In this document: positions 10,943 through 29,747 of the stretch, piece by piece
Numbering within the stretch: the stretch's first letter is position 1
How the letters are laid out: each line of letters opens with the position of its first letter
Source: a virus
Strand: one strand, 5' to 3'
IMG/VR virus record: IMGVR_UViG_3300038441_000602
Span: 1 to 36,273 of that record
DNA: 36,273 nt
The notes under the pieces: model-generated
Seen by the model: the letters and a program-made list of their open reading frames with translations, nothing else
What the model was told of the DNA's origin: nothing
Databases searched by the model: none
Program-made: the position numbers and the translations under genes

Positions 10943-12613
10943 TTAAAGGAAATGAGCAACCCCTGTACGCTTCTTTTCGGGGCGCGGATTGGTCATAAAT
11001 CGGGAAAGTGCTTCATGGGCGAGGAGCCAGGCTGCGTATGCGTCGATCTTCTTCGTGGAGTCCTGAGATTCCTTACCGAAGTACACGCCGTAGTCGTTTT
11101 CTCGAGCCCGTGCATTGAGCGCGTGGCGACGGAGGTCGCGGTTGCCGTCGTACAGAACCTTCTGTTCCTTGATGGACGACAGGAAACGCTCATGGGCGCG
11201 AGTGAGGATCTGGAGTGACTGGCGCATGTCCCAACCGATCGGCTGGTTCTGCGTCGCCTTAATCGTCAGTCGCTGTCCGTACTTCTCGGTCCAGGTGGCG
11301 ATGTAGGACTCCCAAAGGTGCACGTCAGCGAAGAACGCCTTGACCTTGTAGAGCCGGAATGCGCGCGATACCTCGGAGTCGACCTCGTCAACGGGAACCT
11401 CCCAACGGCCGCGGACCTTCTCGTCCCAGACCTTCGGGCGTTCCCACAGTCCAATAAGGAAGGACACGTGATCCTTGACTCGGATCGCAACCAGGGCCGT
11501 GCTGTCGTCCACTCGTGCCCCGTCGAAGCCGAGCACGATCTCGTCACCAGGGACAAGGGTTGCGTCCGGGCGCTCGATGGTGCGGAGCAGGTCAGGCGTA
11601 ACCAGGGCGTCCTGATCGGCGATGATCTGGTTCAGCCACATGCGTCGGCTACGAGCTGCGGAGATCGTGGTGTCCTGGATCGCGGCCATGATGGCCTCCA
11701 GGTCGAGCCAGAAGGCATCGCCACGGATCTTTGGCAGGACAACCGCGAGAGCTTCCTCGGTGAGAGGAGTCTTGGAGTGGGCCTCGATCGAGTCGTAGAG
11801 GAATCCAACGTCGACGGCGCGTCCTTCAGCGATCCGCTCGTACGCTTCCCGCATGCGCTCCGCAACGGAGTCTTCGCCGGGCAGGTAGGCGTTGGTGATC
11901 GCAAGGTAGCGACAGGCCATCTTGACGAGATTTCCGTTGATGACCTCGTACATCTTCGGACCACCGTTACCGACAACCCAGTGATGGGTTTCGTTCAGCA
12001 GCACGAAGGTGCTCCGCTTGCCTTCAAGGGCGCGGTAGTTCGATGTCACGGACTCCAGCCGGCAACGGCCGCGGTGAGCACGGATCAGCTCAGAGCCAGG
12101 CTTGATGCCGTAGAACTCCATGAGCTTCTGGGACATGAGCGACGGCATCAGCGACATCGTGTTGACGGTCTGCTCGATGGAAACCGCAGCAACCTGCACC
12201 CAGGAACGGCGGTGTGCTCGGCCGATCGGCTGTCCGTTGCGGTCCCAGCCAGCGAACTGTGAAGGTCCAACGAACTCGATCAGACAAAGGACTGCACCCA
12301 GTGGGTCCTTGCCCCAGCCCTTGAGTCTTTGCAGGACTCCAGCTCGGTAAACGAACCGGCCACGCTCATCGACGGCGTACCACCAGAGGATGAACCGGAG
12401 CTGTTCCAGGGTGAACTTCCACGGCTTGCTGTCGTCGTCCAGGTCTAGGAGGAACTCGGTGCACCAGCGGACGATCTGCCAGCCGAGAGTCTTCTCAGGG
12501 AGCTTCCAGGGACCGGTCGTGGAGGGCTCTCCGTCCAGTCCAGTCCATGTTGGGCCAAGGTAGGTGCAAGGTAGGGCGTCCAGCTCCTCCGCAGAGAGGT
12601 GCGGGGCGGTCAT
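10943..12613 (-). CDS. Terminase large subunit
   Basis: A 556-residue packaging ATPase/nuclease. The N-terminal ATPase domain has a degenerate Walker A (KGWGKD at residues 98-103) and a Walker B with catalytic Glu (TFVLLNE, E208). The nuclease domain begins with LGFDGARVDD, with the first metal-binding Asp at about 364. Later acidic positions are FADVHLW and KKIDAY near the C-terminus. It lies three bases after small terminase and ten before portal. The motor cuts concatemers and pumps DNA through the portal. Confidence 0.9.
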   Translation of the reverse strand: MTAPHLSAEELDALPCTYLGPTWTGLDGEPSTTGPWKLPEKTLGWQIVRWCTEFLLDLDDDSKPWKFTLEQLRFILWWYAVDERGRFVYRAGVLQRLKGWGKDPLGAVLCLIEFVGPSQFAGWDRNGQPIGRAHRRSWVQVAAVSIEQTVNTMSLMPSLMSQKLMEFYGIKPGSELIRAHRGRCRLESVTSNYRALEGKRSTFVLLNETHHWVVGNGGPKMYEVINGNLVKMACRYLAITNAYLPGEDSVAERMREAYERIAEGRAVDVGFLYDSIEAHSKTPLTEEALAVVLPKIRGDAFWLDLEAIMAAIQDTTISAARSRRMWLNQIIADQDALVTPDLLRTIERPDATLVPGDEIVLGFDGARVDDSTALVAIRVKDHVSFLIGLWERPKVWDEKVRGRWEVPVDEVDSEVSRAFRLYKVKAFFADVHLWESYIATWTEKYGQRLTIKATQNQPIGWDMRQSLQILTRAHERFLSSIKEQKVLYDGNRDLRRHALNARARENDYGVYFGKESQDSTKKIDAYAAWLLAHEALSRFMTNPRPEKKRTGVAHFL

Positions 12614-12615
12614 AG

Positions 12616-13056
12616 TTAGGCCGCCAGCTCTGGCACCAGGTGGAGGCCCTTGAAATAGGTGTCCATCTGCTCCTCGACAACCGGGTCCTCCTCAGATCCA
12701 GCCTTTTCGAGCTCGATCCGGACTCGCCGGCGATCCCCTTCAGTGATGAGGAGACCTTCCATCTGACCAAAGATGGTCTGGATGAGGATTGCGGGCAGCT
12801 TGGTCATCGCAAGAGCCTTGGAATACAGGTCACAGAGCAGGTAGAGCTTCGCGTAGTCAGAAGACTCGTAGAAATCGACCTGTCCGGACTCGAGAACAGA
12901 GTCCCAGAACATCCGAACGGACTTATGCCAGTCGGAATCGGGATCGGGAATTGTTGCAGGGCGGCTTGTGCCCTTAGTTGCGTCCATCCGACCGCCCTTG
13001 TGAGCGTCCCGCGCTCGTGAGAGGTCTTCAGTGCGATTTGGAACGGGGCCAGGCAT
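12616..13056 (-). CDS. Terminase small subunit
   Basis: A 146-residue protein beginning MPGPVPNRTEDLSRARDAHKGG, the characteristic basic start of actinophage small terminases. A WHKSVRMFWDSVLESGQVDFYESSDYAKLYLLCDLY segment follows, which is the conserved core of this family. It recognises the packaging site and delivers DNA to the large subunit. The start is ATG with GGAGGTGT upstream. It follows the tRNA array and is separated from it by a small terminator. Confidence 0.85.
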   Translation of the reverse strand: MPGPVPNRTEDLSRARDAHKGGRMDATKGTSRPATIPDPDSDWHKSVRMFWDSVLESGQVDFYESSDYAKLYLLCDLYSKALAMTKLPAILIQTIFGQMEGLLITEGDRRRVRIELEKAGSEEDPVVEEQMDTYFKGLHLVPELAA

Positions 13057-13115: not shown

Positions 13116-13191
13116 GTGCCGGAACCTGGATTTGAACCAGGGATCTTTGGTTTATGAGACCAACGTCGTAGGCCGCTGGACTATCCCGGCA
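13116..13191 (-). tRNA. tRNA-Met (CAT)
   Basis: Cloverleaf visible: acceptor TGCCGGG/TCCGGCA, anticodon stem TTGGT/ACCAA with loop CTCATAA, T arm CCTGG-TTCAAAT-CCAGG. Whether it is elongator Met or a lysidine-modified Ile tRNA cannot be told from sequence alone. The CCA end is not encoded. Confidence 0.85.
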
Positions 13192-13212
13192 AGGCCGCAT
13201 AACTGGCGGCGG

Positions 13213-13286
13213 TGGACAACGTCGGATTTGAACCGACAACCTTCTGTTTGCAGGACAGATGCTCTACCAGATTGAGCTAGGAGCCC
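13213..13286 (-). tRNA. tRNA, anticodon probably TGC (Ala), irregular
   Basis: D arm GCTC/GAGC, anticodon stem TCTGT/ACAGA with loop CCTGCAA, T arm GTCGG-TTCAAAT-CCGAC. The 5 bp anticodon stem gives TGC (Ala), but position 33 is then C instead of the nearly universal T. Reading one base later would give GCA (Cys) but breaks the stem. The acceptor GGGCTCC/GTTGTCC has two mismatches, so the gene may be degenerate. Confidence 0.6.
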
Positions 13287-13340
13287 GTGATCGTTCAGGT
13301 ACTCTATATACATGCGAGGTTGACGACGCTGAACGAAAAG

Positions 13341-13412
13341 AACCGTAAGAGGGAATCGAACCCTCACCGTCTGCTTGGAAGGCAGAAACGCTAACCATTA
13401 CGCCACTACGGC
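13341..13412 (-). tRNA. tRNA-Gly (TCC)
   Basis: Acceptor GCCGTAG/TTACGGT, anticodon stem TCTGC/GCAGA with loop CTTCCAA, T arm GAGGG-TTCGATT-CCCTC. All stems pair, with G-T at two positions. Confidence 0.85.
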
Positions 13413-13470
13413 TTGGCCCAGGTTTTATATACCGATCGGACGGCCCCGGTTGTGTGGATTTTAACCACCG

Positions 13471-13543
13471 TGTGACTGGATGGAGTCGAACCATCAACCA
13501 CTGGAGCCACATTCCAGTGCTCTGCCAGTTGAGCTACAGCCAC
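13471..13543 (-). tRNA. tRNA-His (GTG)
   Basis: Acceptor GTGGCTG/CAGTCAC, loop ATGTGGC on a CTGGA/TCCAG stem, T arm GATGG-TTCGACT-CCATC. A G precedes position 1, as expected for the extra -1 G of tRNA-His. Confidence 0.85.
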
Positions 13544-13548
13544 CATGG

Positions 13549-13623
13549 TCGGGAATATGGGACTCGAACCCACAACTTCCTGCTCCCAAAGCAGGCCCGG
13601 TCGCCTAGTGCCGGACATTCCCA
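13549..13623 (-). tRNA. tRNA-Pro (TGG)
   Basis: Acceptor TGGGAAT/ATTCCCG, D stem CCGG/CCGG, anticodon stem CCTGC/GCAGG with loop TTTGGGA, T arm GTGGG-TTCGAGT-CCCAT. It ends five bases before the His tRNA begins. Confidence 0.85.
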
Positions 13624-13748
13624 TTGCCACCCCAGATGTTGACGAGCTGGAGCACTCGTTTGGTGGAGCGCCCCGTTTCCATCGAGGCGCCCCGTGCGAT
13701 TCACTCTGCTCCCACTGCGGGGAAGGCTGATTACGGAAGGTGAATGCG

Positions 13749-13823
13749 TTCCCCCACCTGGACTCGAACCAGGGACCCGCCGATTAAGAGTCGGCTGCTC
13801 TATGACCACTGAGCTACAAGGGA
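13749..13823 (-). tRNA. tRNA-Lys (CTT)
   Basis: Acceptor TCCCTTG/TGGGGGA pairs fully when G-T is allowed. Anticodon stem GCCGA/TCGGC with loop CTCTTAA gives CTT. T arm CCTGG-TTCGAGT-CCAGG. Confidence 0.85.
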
Positions 13824-13829
13824 AGGACT

Positions 13830-13900
13830 CGTCACTCCCAGGAATCGAACCTGGACCGCCCCCTCCGCGGGAGCCCTCTGCCGTTAAGAAGTAGAGCGAC
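13830..13900 (-). tRNA. Irregular tRNA, anticodon uncertain (possibly CGG)
   Basis: Acceptor GTCGCTC/GAGTGAC pairs over seven bases (one G-T) and the T arm CCAGG-TTCGATT-CCTGG is perfect. The middle is odd: a D stem CTTC/GAGG is possible, then GCTCC/GGGGC frames loop CGCGGAG, giving CGG but with G at position 33. It may be a decayed tRNA or one with a noncanonical fold. Confidence 0.5.
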
Positions 13901-13905
13901 GATTG

Positions 13906-13978
13906 CCGACCCCCCTGGACTTGAACCAGGAACCTCTCCCATTTCACGGGAGCGCTCTGCCAATTGAGCTAGGGATCG
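13906..13978 (-). tRNA. tRNA-Phe (GAA)
   Basis: Acceptor CGATCCC/GGGGTCG, D stem GCTC/GAGC, anticodon stem CTCCC/GGGAG with loop GTGAAAT, T arm CCTGG-TTCAAGT-CCAGG. Confidence 0.85.
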
Positions 13979-13984
13979 ATCTTG

Positions 13985-14059
13985 CTGGCGCGCCTGGACT
14001 CGAACCAGGAACCGCCCGGTTAACAGCCGGGTGCTCTTGCCCATTTGAGCTATGCGCCA
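13985..14059 (-). tRNA. tRNA-Asn (GTT)
   Basis: Acceptor TGGCGCA/CGCGCCA (one mismatch at the last pair), D stem GCTC/GAGC, anticodon stem CCCGG/CCGGG with loop CTGTTAA, T arm CCTGG-TTCGAGT-CCAGG. It is the first tRNA of the array in the direction of transcription. Confidence 0.85.
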
Positions 14060-14131
14060 AAGGGGATGGGCGTCGTCTACCGATCGTTTGAAAGCACCTT
14101 CTAAGAGAGAGGGCTTCCCATCCAAGTCTTG

Positions 14132-14344
14132 TTACTTCTGGCGAGCCAGTGCCGCGTTACCCCAGAACATGACCTCTTCAAGGTGCGTGACGGCCAGAGC
14201 CTTTTCACGTCCCTCCGGGAGCTTCTCGTTCAGGAAGTCCGCGAGCAGCCGGCAGTTCTGCCGGACACTGGTGTGCGCGTCGCGCTTCTCCTCGGTCGTA
14301 GCCGCGTGGAAAGCGAAGCGGTGCTCGATGTCCTCGGGAGCCAT
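14132..14344 (-). CDS. Acb2-like anti-CBASS protein (cyclic oligonucleotide sponge)
   Basis: A 70-residue helical protein. The order IEHRFAFH, then HTSVRQNCRLLADFLNEKLPEGREKALAVTHLEEVMFW-NAA-AR, matches the conserved plan of the Acb2 (Vs.4-type) family: R-F-x-x-H near the start, an H-x-x-x-R helix, P-x-x-R-E-x-x-L-A-x-T-x-L-E-E, and a closing M-F-W-x-N-A. Known Acb2 proteins bind and sequester the cyclic di- and trinucleotide signals of CBASS (and some related) immunity and so protect the phage. Its ATG overlaps the stop of the upstream gene (TAATG), so the two are co-translated. Small late-arm location fits other Acb2 genes. Function is inferred from motif recall. Confidence 0.75.
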   Translation of the reverse strand: MAPEDIEHRFAFHAATTEEKRDAHTSVRQNCRLLADFLNEKLPEGREKALAVTHLEEVMFWGNAALARQK

Positions 14345-14850
14345 TAGTTAGCCGTCACAACGCCAGCGCCAGTGGCACCGAGCAGGTCTGTCAGGTGGGT
14401 CTTGACCTTCCGCGCGAGGTGAACGGCGGCCGGGTTGCTCACCTTGAACACGTCCACGACACCATCGGCCGAGACAGCAATGGTCGCGCCGCTGTCCAGA
14501 TCGCCAAGGGTGAAGTCGTTCGCGTTCGGAACGGTCTTGACGGCGTAGTAGCCAGCGGTAGCACCAGTCGCGCCCGAGTCGATTGCGATACGAACGATGT
14601 CGCCAACCACCAGGCCGTGAGCGGTCTCAGTGATCTCCTCGTCGTCTGCTTCCCAGACCGAGTTCAGGTCGCCCACGTTGCTCTCAGTGGCCCCGAAGAT
14701 GCCCGAGATGCCAGCCAGGAGCTTCTCGTAGGCGTCGACAGCGGCGTCAGTGTTGTCGCCGTACGAGCCGGTGAAGTCGTTGATGACCTCAGCCTCAACC
14801 GCGTTCAGGCCCGCGATGGCCGTGAGGTGCGGCGCAGGAATGTTCCCCAT
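14344..14850 (-). CDS. Putative virion/decoration protein
   Basis: A 168-residue acidic, Ala/Gly/Val-rich protein starting MGNIPAPHLTAIAGLNAVEAEV. Residues about 77-120 contain HGLVVGDIVRI ... AGYYAVKTVPNANDFTLGD. That H-G-L-x-x-G-D-x-V ... Y-x-V ... F-T-L pattern is a small beta module common in phage structural and fibre proteins. The ribosome binding site is AAGGA seven bases upstream. It is immediately followed by the Acb2-like gene. A structural role is a guess, and nothing indicates an enzyme. Confidence 0.55.
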   Translation of the reverse strand: MGNIPAPHLTAIAGLNAVEAEVINDFTGSYGDNTDAAVDAYEKLLAGISGIFGATESNVGDLNSVWEADDEEITETAHGLVVGDIVRIAIDSGATGATAGYYAVKTVPNANDFTLGDLDSGATIAVSADGVVDVFKVSNPAAVHLARKVKTHLTDLLGATGAGVVTAN

Positions 14851-15246: not shown

Positions 15247-15591
15247 CTAACTCGGTCGTATCATTCCTGGATGTGGTTCCCAGTGCTTTCCATTGCGAGC
15301 TGGAGCCAATCCAAGTCGTGACTCGTTCCGCTCTTTGCGGGACTTGTCGCTGTTGTGGTCCTTGCAGAGCGACCAAAGGTTGTCCGGAGTGTGCGGACCA
15401 AATCGGTCGATGTGGTCTACGAACTTGGCAGGAGCATTGCAACGAATCCCGTTCTCGAGCCACCTACAGCGGTACCTATCCCTCTTCAGGATCTTGGGAC
15501 GTACCTCGGACTGCCAGTTTGATGGAAGTTCTCGACGGCGGTAGTTTCTGGAAGGGAGCTTGTTCGCATTACTCCAGTCGTTCCAACTCAT
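15247..15591 (-). CDS. HNH endonuclease
   Basis: A 114-residue HNH nuclease. Paired Cys C42 and C51, then DH (59-60), N71, C76 and H79 give the C-x8-C ... D-H ... N ... C-x2-H pattern of the zinc-stabilised beta-beta-alpha metal fold. In many cos phages a small HNH protein encoded next to terminase is needed with the large subunit for cos cleavage. The gene is first in the left arm, so that role is likely. The start codon at 15591 sits at the foot of a GC hairpin whose stem and loop hold the ribosome binding site (GGAGG), so translation may be controlled. Confidence 0.85.
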   Translation of the reverse strand: MSWNDWSNANKLPSRNYRRRELPSNWQSEVRPKILKRDRYRCRWLENGIRCNAPAKFVDHIDRFGPHTPDNLWSLCKDHNSDKSRKERNESRLGLAPARNGKHWEPHPGMIRPS

Positions 15592-20001: not shown

Positions 20002-20378
20002 ACTACGAAGCCATGCAGCTATGGATCGATGGGCTCCGTTCGGATGAGTTCAAGCAGGGCGTGGGGAAGCTACTTCAGGTCGAGGATGGCGCGGCTAAGT
20101 ATTGCTGCCTCGGCGTGGCGTGTGTGCTTGCCAAGCGTGCTGGCGTGATCGAGACCCTTCCATGGGAACGCGCAGGCAGGGGATTCGAGGTTGCCGTGCT
20201 TCCGCCTGATGTGTCGGACTGGCTCGGTACCTCCGAATGGGACACCAACAACCGGAAGAACCCCATGGTCAAGGGCATTTCCCTGGCTGGCCACAACGAT
20301 GCTGGAGCCACGTTCCGGGAGATCGCTGACATGTTGGAGCAGGTCGTAGCCGACCACAAGGAGCGTGCTCATGTTTGA
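19998..20378 (+). CDS. Hypothetical phage protein with CCLGV motif
   Basis: A 126-residue protein, ATGA overlap with the preceding gene. The order KYCCLGVACVLAK, then FEVAVLPPDVSDWLG, then NDAGATFREIADMLE is a pattern found in many phage hypothetical proteins of this size. Its partner gene upstream has a related layout. Function unknown. The gene shares its last bases with the start of the dprA-like gene. Confidence 0.65.
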   Translation: MNYEAMQLWIDGLRSDEFKQGVGKLLQVEDGAAKYCCLGVACVLAKRAGVIETLPWERAGRGFEVAVLPPDVSDWLGTSEWDTNNRKNPMVKGISLAGHNDAGATFREIADMLEQVVADHKERAHV

Positions 20379-21063
20379 GCCACGGATCATCGATCCCAAT
20401 TCAAGTGAATGGCCGTGGGTGTTCCGTGACCTGCCCGCGGACTACACACCAGAACGACTCTGGGTGCGCGGAGACGGGAACCTTGAGGAGTTCACCAACA
20501 CGGCCATCTCCATCATCGGGGCTCGTGCCAGTACGGCGTACGGGGATCACACTGCCAGTGACATTGCCAACGGACTCGCCACGAACGGCTGGACGGTTGT
20601 CTCTGGTGGTGCTCTCGGAATCGACGGTGCTGCCCATCGTGGTGCCCTTGCGGCTGACTCCATGCGCTTCCCTGGCACAAAGGGACGCACGATCGCGGTC
20701 CTCGCGTCCGGTGTGGACGTGTTCTATCCAGCCGCGCACCACTTCCTGTTCGAGCACATCCTGCGTAACGGTGGGCTGATCGTGTCCGAGTATCCGCCCG
20801 GATCTCACCCGCACCGTTCACGTTTTCTCGAGCGCAACCGGCTGATTGCTGCCATGAGTGGCGGGATGGTCATGGTTGAGGCTGGGCAGAACAGTGGATC
20901 GACGGCTGCCTTTGGGCATGCTCGCACGCTGAAGCGGAAGCTCATGGTGGTGCCTGGTCCGGTCACGTCTGCCTACAGCAAGGGCACTAACTACCAGCTC
21001 AGGTTCGCTGATGTGTCACCGGTCGGTACGGCCGCTGAAGTGGAAGAGGTGATGAACGCATGA
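20371..21063 (+). CDS. DprA-like Rossmann-fold protein
   Basis: A 230-residue protein. I chose ATG 20371, with GGAG ten bases upstream. It carries the DprA/Smf core in order: SIIGARAST, VVSGGALGIDGAAHRGAL, VLASGVDVFYPAAHHFLF, GGLIVSEYPPG, FLERNRLIAAMS, VMVEAGQNSGSTAAFGHA and VVPGPV. Cellular DprA protects single-stranded DNA and loads RecA. The N-terminal SAM and C-terminal winged-helix regions of long DprA are missing here, leaving the core. Phage DprA-like proteins may act in recombination of incoming DNA or in defence contact. Site 7 lies within codons 10-13. Confidence 0.85.
   Translation: MFEPRIIDPNSSEWPWVFRDLPADYTPERLWVRGDGNLEEFTNTAISIIGARASTAYGDHTASDIANGLATNGWTVVSGGALGIDGAAHRGALAADSMRFPGTKGRTIAVLASGVDVFYPAAHHFLFEHILRNGGLIVSEYPPGSHPHRSRFLERNRLIAAMSGGMVMVEAGQNSGSTAAFGHARTLKRKLMVVPGPVTSAYSKGTNYQLRFADVSPVGTAAEVEEVMNA
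20398..20411. promoter_or_regulatory. Operator-type palindrome site 7 (AATTCAAGTGAATG)
   Basis: Core ATTCAAGTGAAT intact but outer pair A/G instead of T/A. Within the first codons of the dprA-like gene. Confidence 0.65.
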
Positions 21064-24611: not shown

Positions 24612-24763
24612 GCGCGGGCCTGACCAAGAAGTGGGCAACGGCTCGGAAGGCTGCGAGTTGCGCTGGGTGTCGGCGGGCTATCCCCGTTGGTGCACAGTAC
24701 TGGCAGGTCCAACCACCGTTCGTTCCCGCGACCAAGTTCTGCTCAGAGGAGTGTGACAGATGA
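24608..24763 (+). CDS. Small zinc-ribbon-like protein (51 aa)
   Basis: ATGA overlap on both sides. Cys pairs CAGC (about residue 18) and CSEEC (about residue 45) form a two-knuckle zinc site of TRASH/ribbon type, with a basic N-terminus. Directly precedes the Ku gene, which also has Cys residues in its N-terminal part. Possibly an adaptor, but no family certain. Confidence 0.65.
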   Translation: MSAGLTKKWATARKAASCAGCRRAIPVGAQYWQVQPPFVPATKFCSEECDR

Positions 24764-25710
24764 GAGCGGTATGGAAAGGTGTCATCTCCTTCGGACTGGC
24801 GAACATCGCGGTCAGGCTGTACTCAGCCACGGAGGACAAGGACATCCGATTCAAGTCAGTGCATGTCGGCTGTGGTGGTGGGATCAAGATGCCACGGATG
24901 TGCACGAAGTGCGGTGAACAGGGTCTCGCGTCCAGTGCCATCGGCAAGGGCTACGAGACGGGAGACGGCCTGGTCCTGCTCGATGAATCCGATCTGGCTG
25001 ACCTGCCGCTGAGCACCAGCCGGCGCATTGAGATCGAGCAGTTCGTTACGGACGTCGATCCGATCTATCACGAGAAGATGTACTACCTGGAGCCGGACGG
25101 TCCGGAGATGATCCAGGCATACGAGCTGCTCGCGCATGGACTGAAGGGGACTCGCCGGATCGGCATAGGGAAGGCGGCGCTACGACAGCGAGAGCGCATG
25201 GTCGCGCTGAGTGTCCTGGATGGGAACGTCATCCGCCTGACCACACTGCGCTGGCCTGACGAGGTGCGTGTTCCTGAGTTCATGCACATGCCTACGGGCG
25301 AAAGCACCACAACGGCCGGGTACCTGATGGCGTGCGAGATCATCAAGTCCATGGCCGTCGATGAGCTGGACCTGACCCAGTATTCAGATGAATACCGCAA
25401 CGCCCTGGAACGGGTCATCGAGGCGAAGGTGGCCGGACAGTCCTCGCCGGCGATCGAGTCTAAGCCACAGTCCAACGTGGTCGACCTCATGGCAGCACTC
25501 AGAGCGTCCGTCGAGAAGGCCCGGGCGGACAGGCAGGCCAGGGAGGCTGCCACAGAACAGGCGATTCCCGCTCTAGTGGGCTCGCGTAGAGCCACGAAAA
25601 CGACGAGGACGGGTCAGGGCAAGGGTACGGAAAAGATCTTGGCTCCTGTAAAGGTTGCCTCATCCACATCACGGGCGACACGTACGCCCAAAGTTGCTAG
25701 TCAGTCCTAA
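24760..25710 (+). CDS. ku: Ku protein (DNA end-binding, NHEJ)
   Basis: A 316-residue homologue of bacterial Ku. The opening MRAVWKGVISFGLANIAVRLYSATEDKDIRFKSVH is diagnostic, as are LLDESDLADLP, YYLEPDG and AYELLAHGLKGTRRIGIGK. The N-terminal domain has a CxxC-type element (RMCTKCGEQG) not usual in Ku, perhaps a small zinc insert. The C-terminal tail after residue 230 is basic and Ser/Thr-rich. Bacterial Ku bridges DNA ends and recruits LigD. In mycobacteriophages Omega and Corndog a phage Ku helps circularise genomes with short cohesive ends. A partial 75-base element lies in codons near the end, and site 10 lies in the middle. Confidence 0.93.
   Translation: MRAVWKGVISFGLANIAVRLYSATEDKDIRFKSVHVGCGGGIKMPRMCTKCGEQGLASSAIGKGYETGDGLVLLDESDLADLPLSTSRRIEIEQFVTDVDPIYHEKMYYLEPDGPEMIQAYELLAHGLKGTRRIGIGKAALRQRERMVALSVLDGNVIRLTTLRWPDEVRVPEFMHMPTGESTTTAGYLMACEIIKSMAVDELDLTQYSDEYRNALERVIEAKVAGQSSPAIESKPQSNVVDLMAALRASVEKARADRQAREAATEQAIPALVGSRRATKTTRTGQGKGTEKILAPVKVASSTSRATRTPKVASQS
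25381..25394. promoter_or_regulatory. Operator-type palindrome site 10 (TATTCAGATGAATA)
   Basis: Deep inside the Ku gene, about 620 bases from its start. A full 14-base match to the half-sites here argues against a role limited to promoters. Confidence 0.75.
25623..25651. repeat. 75-base hairpin element, partial copy inside ku
   Basis: Bases 25629-25649 are the exact reverse complement of 4501-4521, and 25623-25640 the exact reverse complement of 35066-35083. The stretch is in frame and encodes GTEKILAPVK near the Ku C-terminus. Confidence 0.75.
25694..25707 (+). promoter_or_regulatory. TTGCTARTNNGYC element 5
   Basis: TTGCTAGTCAGTCC across the end of the Ku gene, 18 bases before the GTG of the DUF932 gene. 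Confidence 0.5.
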
Positions 25711-28542: not shown

Positions 28543-28806
28543 GTGACGAACGTCAATATACGGCTGGAACCCACTGCGCTAGAACTGGCGGTTGAGCGGA
28601 TCGTTGAGAACGTCGAGAACTTCAGCGACGTTGACAACGCCGAACAGAAGCAGTGGCTGATCGACCAGATCATGCGCGACCTGCTCGGTGAGGGGTACGA
28701 GAAGTGGCGGGACGCATTCAACGCGGAGTCCGAGCAGCTCGGGGTCGGCCCCTGGAGTGAAGGGGTCATGCCCGGAGATCCCATCACGCAGGCGGCATTC
28801 AAGTGA
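28543..28806 (+). CDS. Hypothetical acidic protein (87 aa)
   Basis: GTG 28543 behind GGAGG. Acidic helical (VERIVENVENFSDVDNAEQK). Its stop TGA lies inside palindromic site 11 and overlaps the next GTG. Unknown. Confidence 0.6.
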   Translation: MTNVNIRLEPTALELAVERIVENVENFSDVDNAEQKQWLIDQIMRDLLGEGYEKWRDAFNAESEQLGVGPWSEGVMPGDPITQAAFK

Positions 28807-28809
28807 ATA
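28796..28809. promoter_or_regulatory. Operator-type palindrome site 11 (CATTCAAGTGAATA)
   Basis: Contains both the stop of the upstream gene (TGA 28804-28806) and the GTG start of the polynucleotide kinase gene (28803-28805). The site therefore sits exactly on a translational junction. Confidence 0.8.
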
Positions 28810-29747
28810 GGCTCATCGTCTACCGTGGACTGCCCGGAGCCGGGAAGACAACCCTGGCAAAGGCTGTCGTGGCTGAGGACCCGCGGCGCTGGGCACGGGT
28901 GAACCGGGATGACCTGCGTGCCATGGCTCACGACGGTATTCACTTGAATCAGACGGGCACCGAGGACGGTACCGAGCGGGCGATCATTGCCATACGGGAT
29001 GCTGCAATCTCAGCTCTGCTCAAGCGTGGCATGAACGTCATCAACGACGACACGAACCTGCCAGCCAGGACGGTTCGGGACCTGCGTCGACTGGCCACAT
29101 TGCACGGTGCTGAGTTCGAGGTGGTGGACCTGACCGGAGAGTCCGTGGACGTTTGCGTGGCTCGCGACAAGGCCAGGATCAAACCGGTCGGGGAGAACGT
29201 CATCCGTGACTACCACAAGCGGTACATCAAGGGGCAGCCCTGGCCGCTACCCATCCCGGACGAACCTGTCGATGACCAGTGGGTGATCGAGCCGTACAAG
29301 CCAACGGGCGTGGGTCCGAAGACCTGGATCGTGGACATCGACGGAACCGTTGCCCTGATGGGTACCCGTTCGCCGTTCGATGAGTCACGAGTCTGCGAGG
29401 ATCAGCCGCACGTGCCTGTCGTCTCAGCCGTCCACGCACTGTGGATGCAGGGATACGAAATCATCTTCCTGTCCGGACGGAAGGATTCCTGTCGAGACGC
29501 GACCGATGCTTGGCTTCGCAGGCACTTCCCGGCCATGACCTACAACAGTGGACTGAGACTGTTCATGCGTCCAGCAACGGGACCGCTCGCTGGCGAGACG
29601 GACTGGAAGGTGAAGCTCACACTGTTCAACGAACATGTTCGGCACAACTACGACGTGGCCGGCGTGCTCGATGACCGCAATCAGGTAGTCGACATGTGGC
29701 GGAAGCTGGGCCTGACCTGCTTCCAGGTAGCGGATGGCAACTTCTAG
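28803..29747 (+). CDS. Polynucleotide kinase/phosphatase
   Basis: A 314-residue protein with two domains. The kinase half has Walker A GLPGAGKTT (residues 9-17) and lid-region Arg residues. The phosphatase half has the HAD signature DIDGT at residues 178-182, a following Ser/Lys region and a DDRNQVV box near the C-terminus. This is the T4 Pnk layout (kinase then 3'-phosphatase). It can restore 5'-phosphate and 3'-hydroxyl ends of cleaved DNA or RNA, for example tRNAs cut by host defence nucleases. No phage ligase is in the window. The host would have to supply the ligase, possibly LigD together with Ku. Site 12 lies in codons 45-50. Confidence 0.88.
   Translation: MNRLIVYRGLPGAGKTTLAKAVVAEDPRRWARVNRDDLRAMAHDGIHLNQTGTEDGTERAIIAIRDAAISALLKRGMNVINDDTNLPARTVRDLRRLATLHGAEFEVVDLTGESVDVCVARDKARIKPVGENVIRDYHKRYIKGQPWPLPIPDEPVDDQWVIEPYKPTGVGPKTWIVDIDGTVALMGTRSPFDESRVCEDQPHVPVVSAVHALWMQGYEIIFLSGRKDSCRDATDAWLRRHFPAMTYNSGLRLFMRPATGPLAGETDWKVKLTLFNEHVRHNYDVAGVLDDRNQVVDMWRKLGLTCFQVADGNF
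28937..28950. promoter_or_regulatory. Operator-type palindrome site 12 (TATTCACTTGAATC)
   Basis: Within the kinase gene, 127 bases after site 11 and in the opposite sense of its asymmetric centre. Last base differs from consensus. Confidence 0.65.

What the first reader, a model, noticed from the sequence alone, without database searches (positions are those of the whole stretch)
14132..14344. Acb2-like anti-CBASS gene between tRNAs and the HNH gene
The 70-residue protein has the R-F-x-x-H, P-x-x-R-E-x-x-L-A and M-F-W-x-N-A landmarks of the Acb2 sponge family. It is co-translated with an unrecognised 168-residue protein, which may be virion-associated. If right, this phage likely meets CBASS or related cyclic-nucleotide immunity in its host.
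Basis: partly seen in the sequence, partly recalled or inferred. Interest (0 to 1): 0.6.

Follow-up and report, generated by a model that had tools for sequence, protein, structure and literature searches.

The report
Acb2-family immune-signal sponge gene
A virus of soil bacteria carries a small gene of a known family whose proteins soak up the chemical alarm signals bacteria use against infection; it is a convincing but ordinary new member of that family.

Summary
Window 14132-14344 (minus strand) is a 70-codon ORF with exactly the motifs described. It matches Pfam PF24729 (Acb2/Tad1 hairpin) at 68.3 bits against a cut-off of 27; T4 Vs.4, the reference Acb2, scores 71.4 on the same model. It belongs to phrog_1454, with relatives in 372 phage records (mostly Mycobacterium, Paenibacillus and Gordonia) and in actinobacterial prophages. 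AlphaFold2 gives the Acb2 layout, a short N-terminal helix plus two long antiparallel helices (pLDDT 90). Residues aligned to Acb2 nucleotide contacts, F12 (Vs.4 Y8) and R28 (Vs.4 K23), stay aromatic in 60/64 and basic in 63/64 relatives. dN/dS is about 0.1-0.17. The gene overlaps the upstream 168-codon gene by one base (TAATG). Streptomyces phage Ibantik carries a relative in a similar place.

Most likely mechanism: a sponge, by analogy hexameric, that sequesters cyclic di- or trinucleotides made by CBASS or related immunity. The ligand is untested. By sequence this branch is nearer to Acb2 homolog 43 and the Tad1 hairpin than to Vs.4, so other ligands are possible. Putative actinophage Acb2 genes are already in the literature. 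New member of a known kind, modest interest.

The parts
14132..14344 (-). acb2-like gene, 70-aa standalone Acb2/Tad1 hairpin-domain protein
   Evidence: PF24729 68.3 bits vs cut-off 27; phrog_1454 E 9.5e-30; AF2 pLDDT 90, helices 3-9, 21-41, 46-68; dN/dS about 0.1-0.17
14344..14850 (-). 168-aa upstream partner, stop overlaps the acb2 start by one base (TAATG); no close relative found; residues 67-138 resemble a module seen in phage tail/virion proteins
   Evidence: overlap; no tblastn match in phages or viral contigs; phrog_10467 E 2.4e-8, phrog_584 major tail E 1.6e-4; PF12195 20.1 bits, below its cut-off of 35; single-sequence AF2 fold uninformative, pLDDT 35
13116..14059 (-). nine tRNA genes directly downstream on the same strand (Asn, Phe, Pro, Lys, Pro, His, Gly, Ala, Met)
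   Evidence: ARAGORN
15247..15591 (-). HNH endonuclease upstream of the pair
   Evidence: phrog_333 E 1.3e-19
12616..13056 (-). gene between the tRNAs and the large terminase; weak resemblance to ORFs just upstream of terminase in other loci
   Evidence: phrog_226 E 3.5e-26, labelled minor tail protein by PHROGs; weak blastp E 3e-4 to L052/L073 ORFs
10943..12613 (-). terminase large subunit, downstream of the tRNAs
   Evidence: phrog_9 E 4.1e-79

Best explanation
The gene encodes a standalone Acb2-family nucleotide sponge. The 70-aa protein folds as a short N-terminal helix plus a long antiparallel helical hairpin (predicted). Six copies probably assemble into a compact hexamer (inferred from solved relatives). 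Pockets between protomers, lined by the N-terminal aromatic F12, the basic R28 and the C-terminal end of helix 3, bind cyclic di- and/or trinucleotides without cutting them (inferred from Vs.4 and PaMx33 Acb2). Sequestering the alarm signal keeps CBASS effectors, or effectors of another cyclic-nucleotide system sharing the signal, inactive so that the phage can replicate. Shown here: the gene, its constraint, its family and its predicted monomer fold. Inferred: hexamer, ligand, and which defence it counters.
For: PF24729 at 68.3 bits, while T4 Vs.4 scores 71.4 on the same model. The profile of its family finds Acb2 homolog 43 (PDB 9ptq, 6 chains) at E 5.4e-9 and Tad1 chains at E 0.007. AF2 shows one short and two long antiparallel helices, pLDDT 90, the layout described for Acb2 (PMC10419184). 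The best BFVD structural matches are Acb2/Tad1 hairpin proteins. F12 aligns with Vs.4 Y8, whose Y8A mutant loses cyclic dinucleotide binding (PMC12657218), and is F or Y in 60/64 relatives. R28 aligns with Vs.4 K23 and is R in 63/64. dN/dS is about 0.1-0.17. Neighbourhoods differ widely (terminase side in Ibantik, thyX in a cluster A phage, lysins in prophi91-3), as expected of an accessory gene. Possible hosts have targets: CD-NTase in 28/199 Streptomyces genomes; in Nonomuraea a CD-NTase plus Cap15 CBASS lies about 15 kb from a relative.
Against: No direct binding or protection data. Pairwise BLASTP to Vs.4 finds nothing; profile-profile comparison aligns only the last helix (E 2.5e-4, probability 43%). 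Foldseek against PDB is not significant: Vs.4-cGAMP appears only at rank 29, E 9.2, a weakness expected of a 70-residue helical hairpin. Vs.4 F82, which stacks on the ligand, aligns with A67; PaMx33 Acb2 also has Ala at the aligned place. The F12 position is S in Ibantik and H in two relatives. Only 1/29 genomes carrying a relative have a SMODS match.
Confidence: 0.8

Rival explanations
1. The protein is a sponge, but its main ligand is not a CBASS signal: it captures cyclic ADP-ribose of Thoeris-like TIR systems, or cyclic oligoadenylates of type III CRISPR, like the hairpin of Tad1 without its beta-sheet domain.
For: Its sequence profile matches Tad1 chains (E 0.007) and shares the RExxxAxTHxEExxxW helix-3 motif with Tad1, whereas Vs.4 and PaMx33 Acb2 were not found among PDB sequences at E up to 10. 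ThsB_TIR matches occur in 24/199 Streptomyces genomes, about as often as CD-NTase.
Against: It has no room for the N-terminal beta-sheet of Tad1; [quoted passage not shown] Standalone size and helix layout are those of Acb2.
Confidence: 0.25
2. The hairpin has been co-opted for a housekeeping role: buffering host c-di-AMP or c-di-GMP, or acting in phage nucleotide metabolism, rather than anti-immunity.
For: In cluster A mycobacteriophage 20ES and Gordonia phage Battleship the gene is next to thyX and near ribonucleotide reductase. Few genomes carrying a relative have a CD-NTase.
Against: Neighbourhoods vary freely; the characterised members of the Pfam family known to me are counter-defence sponges (general knowledge; PMC12043709).
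Confidence: 0.08
3. It is a structural or assembly helper protein translated with the upstream 168-aa possibly virion-associated protein.
For: One-base TAATG overlap and position on the late-gene strand near terminase; a large terminase matching the probes was found on the same fetched locus in 18 related loci.
Against: The 168-aa partner was found as such in no other phage, while the hairpin gene occurs with many different neighbours; family profile matches are to sponges.
Confidence: 0.04

Closest known systems
Acb2 (T4 Vs.4; Pseudomonas phage p26, PDB 8h2j)
   Same: Standalone small protein of PF24729; short N-terminal helix plus long helical hairpin; aromatic and basic residue at the positions of Vs.4 Y8 and K23; T-x-L-x-E-x-x-x-W in the last helix of Vs.4.
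   Different: No detectable pairwise BLASTP similarity to Vs.4; 70 aa instead of 88-94; shorter loop between the long helices; carries RFxxH and GREK motifs that Vs.4 and p26 lack; no equivalent of Vs.4 F82.
Acb2 homolog 43 (PDB 9ptq)
   Same: Closest solved relative by sequence (E 5.4e-9 with the profile); LPEGREK motif shared and helix 3 similar; 76 aa.
   Different: N-terminal part not aligned; its ligand is not stated in the record seen here.
Tad1 (Thoeris anti-defence 1)
   Same: Hairpin helices of PF24729 with the RExxxAxTHxEExxxW motif.
   Different: Tad1 has an additional N-terminal antiparallel beta-sheet (four strands) that this 70-aa protein lacks.
Putative Acb2 of actinophages (Microbacterium phage Statler gp57; mycobacteriophages Xandras gp101 and BigBubba gp102)
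   Same: Actinophage genes annotated as cyclic-oligonucleotide sequestration proteins in published announcements (PMC13348362, PMC11953737).
   Different: Different phage groups and gene contexts; also untested. Their sequences were not compared with this one here.
Streptomyces phage Ibantik gene 60
   Same: 74% identical, similar place: HNH, tRNAs, acb2-like, then terminase and portal.
   Different: Annotated hypothetical; tRNAs lie upstream of it, and it is followed by a peptidase gene instead of being preceded by the 168-aa gene.

Membership tests
Acb2 (PF24729 hairpin family, standalone) | Score above the curated cut-off of PF24729 | tested here: met
   68.3 bits vs 27, positions 2-58 of 58; positive control T4 Vs.4 71.4 bits
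Acb2 | Standalone three-helix architecture: short N-terminal helix plus two long antiparallel helices | tested here: met
   AF2 pLDDT 90, helices 3-9, 21-41, 46-68; description of Acb2 in PMC10419184
Acb2 | Significant structural match to a solved Acb2 | tested here: inconclusive
   Foldseek PDB: Vs.4-cGAMP 7uq2 E 9.2, TMq 0.59, not significant; best BFVD hits are Acb2/Tad1 hairpin proteins, E 7e-4
Acb2 | Aromatic stacking residue in the N-terminal part (Vs.4 Y8, PaMx33 Y11) | tested here: met
   F12 aligned with Y8 by the Pfam model; F/Y in 60/64 relatives
Acb2 | Basic residue on helix 2 at the phosphate-contact position (PaMx33 K26, Vs.4 K23) | tested here: met
   R28 at the aligned place, R in 63/64; the contact role of K26 is from general knowledge
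Acb2 | Vs.4 F82-type stacking residue at the C-terminal end (found in Vs.4, not a constant feature of Acb2) | tested here: not met
   A67 aligned with F82; not strictly defining, the Pseudomonas Acb2 has Ala there too
Acb2 | Homohexamer | not testable with these tools
   Only single-chain prediction available
Acb2 | Binds and does not cut cyclic di-/trinucleotides; antagonises CBASS | not testable with these tools
   Needs biochemistry and phage assays
Tad1 | N-terminal beta-sheet domain joined to the hairpin | tested here: not met
   70-aa all-helical model, only 20 residues before the hairpin

The most novel reading that the evidence does not exclude
The actinophage branch (phrog_1454), with its near-invariant RFxxH, GREK and WxNAAxAR motifs absent from T4 and Pseudomonas Acb2, could have a distinct ligand range, for example a Thoeris-type cyclic ADP-ribose or a cyclic nucleotide made by an uncharacterised actinobacterial defence, making it a functionally separate sponge family.
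Probability: 0.25. Interest if true: 0.5.

Novelty: new member of a known kind. Interest (0 to 1): 0.22.

Why it matters
It adds one well-supported gene to a common but mostly unnamed phage family (372 phage records by tblastn; among the 40 listed, those with an annotation there say 'hypothetical protein'). If its sponge activity holds, many Mycobacterium, Gordonia, Streptomyces and Paenibacillus larvae phages may carry a counter-defence against cyclic-nucleotide immunity, and such genes may matter when choosing phages for use.

Tried and rejected
PADLOC and NCBIfam gave no match. BLASTP of the protein against Vs.4: nothing. hhalign against a six-sequence alignment of Vs.4 and relatives: only the C-terminal helix. 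Foldseek against PDB: non-significant, helical proteins of any origin. The 168-aa partner: no relatives in phages or IMG/VR, PDB hits spurious (human CPSF6, E 0.016), single-sequence fold useless. A link between relatives and a host CD-NTase was sought; 1/29 genomes gives no support for co-occurrence, and the only background measured was Streptomyces. Primary Acb2 structure papers (Huiting 2023, Cao 2024, Jenson 2023, Li 2024) were looked up by DOI from memory and are not held in the library, so contact residues rest on PMC12657218 and general knowledge. The idea that the ORF is a chance frame opposite the 99-aa plus-strand ORF 14052-14351 was rejected on family and dN/dS evidence.

Full report
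What is there. The minus-strand ORF 14132-14344 encodes 70 residues with an ATG start. The ORF is preceded by a 168-codon ORF whose stop overlaps its start by one base (TAATG), and followed by nine tRNA genes on the same strand, a 146-codon gene, the large terminase and the portal. Upstream lies an HNH endonuclease. The window is a 36,273-base virus record with tape-measure, major tail, major head and portal genes on one arm and DNA metabolism genes (Ku-like, polynucleotide kinase, DprA-like) on the other. Terminase and portal DNA are most like Streptomyces phages (65-67% identity).

Family. Pfam PF24729 (Acb2/Tad1 hairpin) matches with 68.3 bits against a cut-off of 27. As a positive control, T4 Vs.4, the reference Acb2, scores 71.4 bits. 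PHROG 1454 matches with E 9.5e-30 and also picks up Vs.4 weakly (E 7e-4). tblastn finds 372 phage records, mostly Mycobacterium, Paenibacillus and Gordonia; IMG/VR gives 38 loci at 56-89% identity; genome contigs give 32 loci, mainly Streptomyces, Nonomuraea, Nocardia and Mycolicibacterium, with a few in Clostridia, an alphaproteobacterium and Aneurinibacillus. Against close relatives dN/dS is about 0.1-0.17.

Structure and residues. AlphaFold2 with 25 sequences gives pLDDT 90 and helices 3-9, 21-41 and 46-68, the layout reported for Acb2 (PMC10419184). Foldseek against BFVD returns Acb2/Tad1 hairpin proteins first; against PDB no hit is significant and Vs.4 with cGAMP is rank 29. The Pfam model puts F12 opposite Vs.4 Y8, needed for cyclic dinucleotide binding (PMC12657218); counting along helix 2 from the shared TEEK puts R28 opposite K23 of Vs.4 and K26 of the Pseudomonas protein. 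In 64 distinct sequences F12 is F or Y in 60 and R28 is R in 63; H13, P43, K48, M59 and N63 are near-invariant and E47, E56, W61, A64, A67 and R68 invariant. Vs.4 F82, which stacks on the ligand, is replaced by A67, as in the Pseudomonas protein.

How close to Acb2 proper. By sequence the nearest solved chain is Acb2 homolog 43 (9ptq, E 5.4e-9), then Tad1 chains (E 0.007); Vs.4 and the Pseudomonas Acb2 are not found by this profile at E up to 10, and hhalign aligns only helix 3. The protein is therefore a standalone hairpin, Acb2-like in build, from a divergent branch. Lack of the Tad1 beta-sheet excludes Tad1 proper.

Context. The gene sits in a similar place in Streptomyces phage Ibantik (HNH, two tRNAs, acb2-like, then terminase and portal) and is followed closely by a tRNA gene in L004, L011 and L013. 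Elsewhere the neighbours differ: thyX and ribonucleotide reductase in mycobacteriophage 20ES, thyX and MazG in Gordonia phage Battleship, lysins and holin in prophi91-3. Variable neighbours fit an accessory counter-defence gene. The 168-aa partner was not found in any other phage; among the fetched loci only one stretch of it matched, weakly, part of a larger ORF in L052.

Hosts. A CD-NTase (SMODS) match is in 28 of 199 Streptomyces genomes and ThsB_TIR in 24 of 199, so targets exist. Among 29 genomes that carry a relative, one has SMODS: in Nonomuraea thailandensis a CD-NTase plus Cap15 pair lies next to an integrase and about 15 kb from the relative. The actual host of this phage is unknown.

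Mechanism. Best supported: a nucleotide sponge. Shown: gene, constraint, family, predicted monomer fold. Inferred: hexamer, cyclic di-/trinucleotide sequestration, CBASS (or Thoeris, type III CRISPR) as the countered system. Acb2 can also trigger Panoptes (PMC12657218), so the gene may be a liability in some hosts.

Known or new. Putative Acb2 genes in actinophages have been published (Statler, PMC13348362; Xandras and BigBubba, PMC11953737). This is a new, uncharacterised member of a known kind.

Noticed in passing
L085:1499-4885 (-) and L058:6001 (Nonomuraea thailandensis): A CBASS-like pair (CD-NTase with SMODS, Cap15 cyclic-dinucleotide receptor with TM helices) plus a DACNG/DACNH sensor-domain protein lies beside a phage integrase and about 15 kb from an acb2-like gene, so immunity and its antagonist may share or adjoin one prophage.
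   Followed up: partly
window 24760-25710 (+): Phage-encoded Ku-like DNA end-binding protein (PF02735 E 1.7e-35).
   Followed up: no
window 28803-29747 (+): Polynucleotide kinase-phosphatase (HAD_PNKP E 4e-46); with nine tRNAs in the phage it could serve tRNA repair.
   Followed up: no
window 20365-21063 (+): DprA-like (SLOG-fold) protein, PF02481 E 1.9e-56.
   Followed up: no
window 14344-14850 (-): 168-aa protein without detectable close relatives in phage or viral collections; residues 67-138 hit tail/beta-barrel models weakly.
   Followed up: partly
L042, L044 (cluster A mycobacteriophage 20ES, Gordonia phage Battleship): The acb2-like gene, annotated hypothetical, sits next to thyX and near ribonucleotide reductase in both phages.
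   Followed up: no
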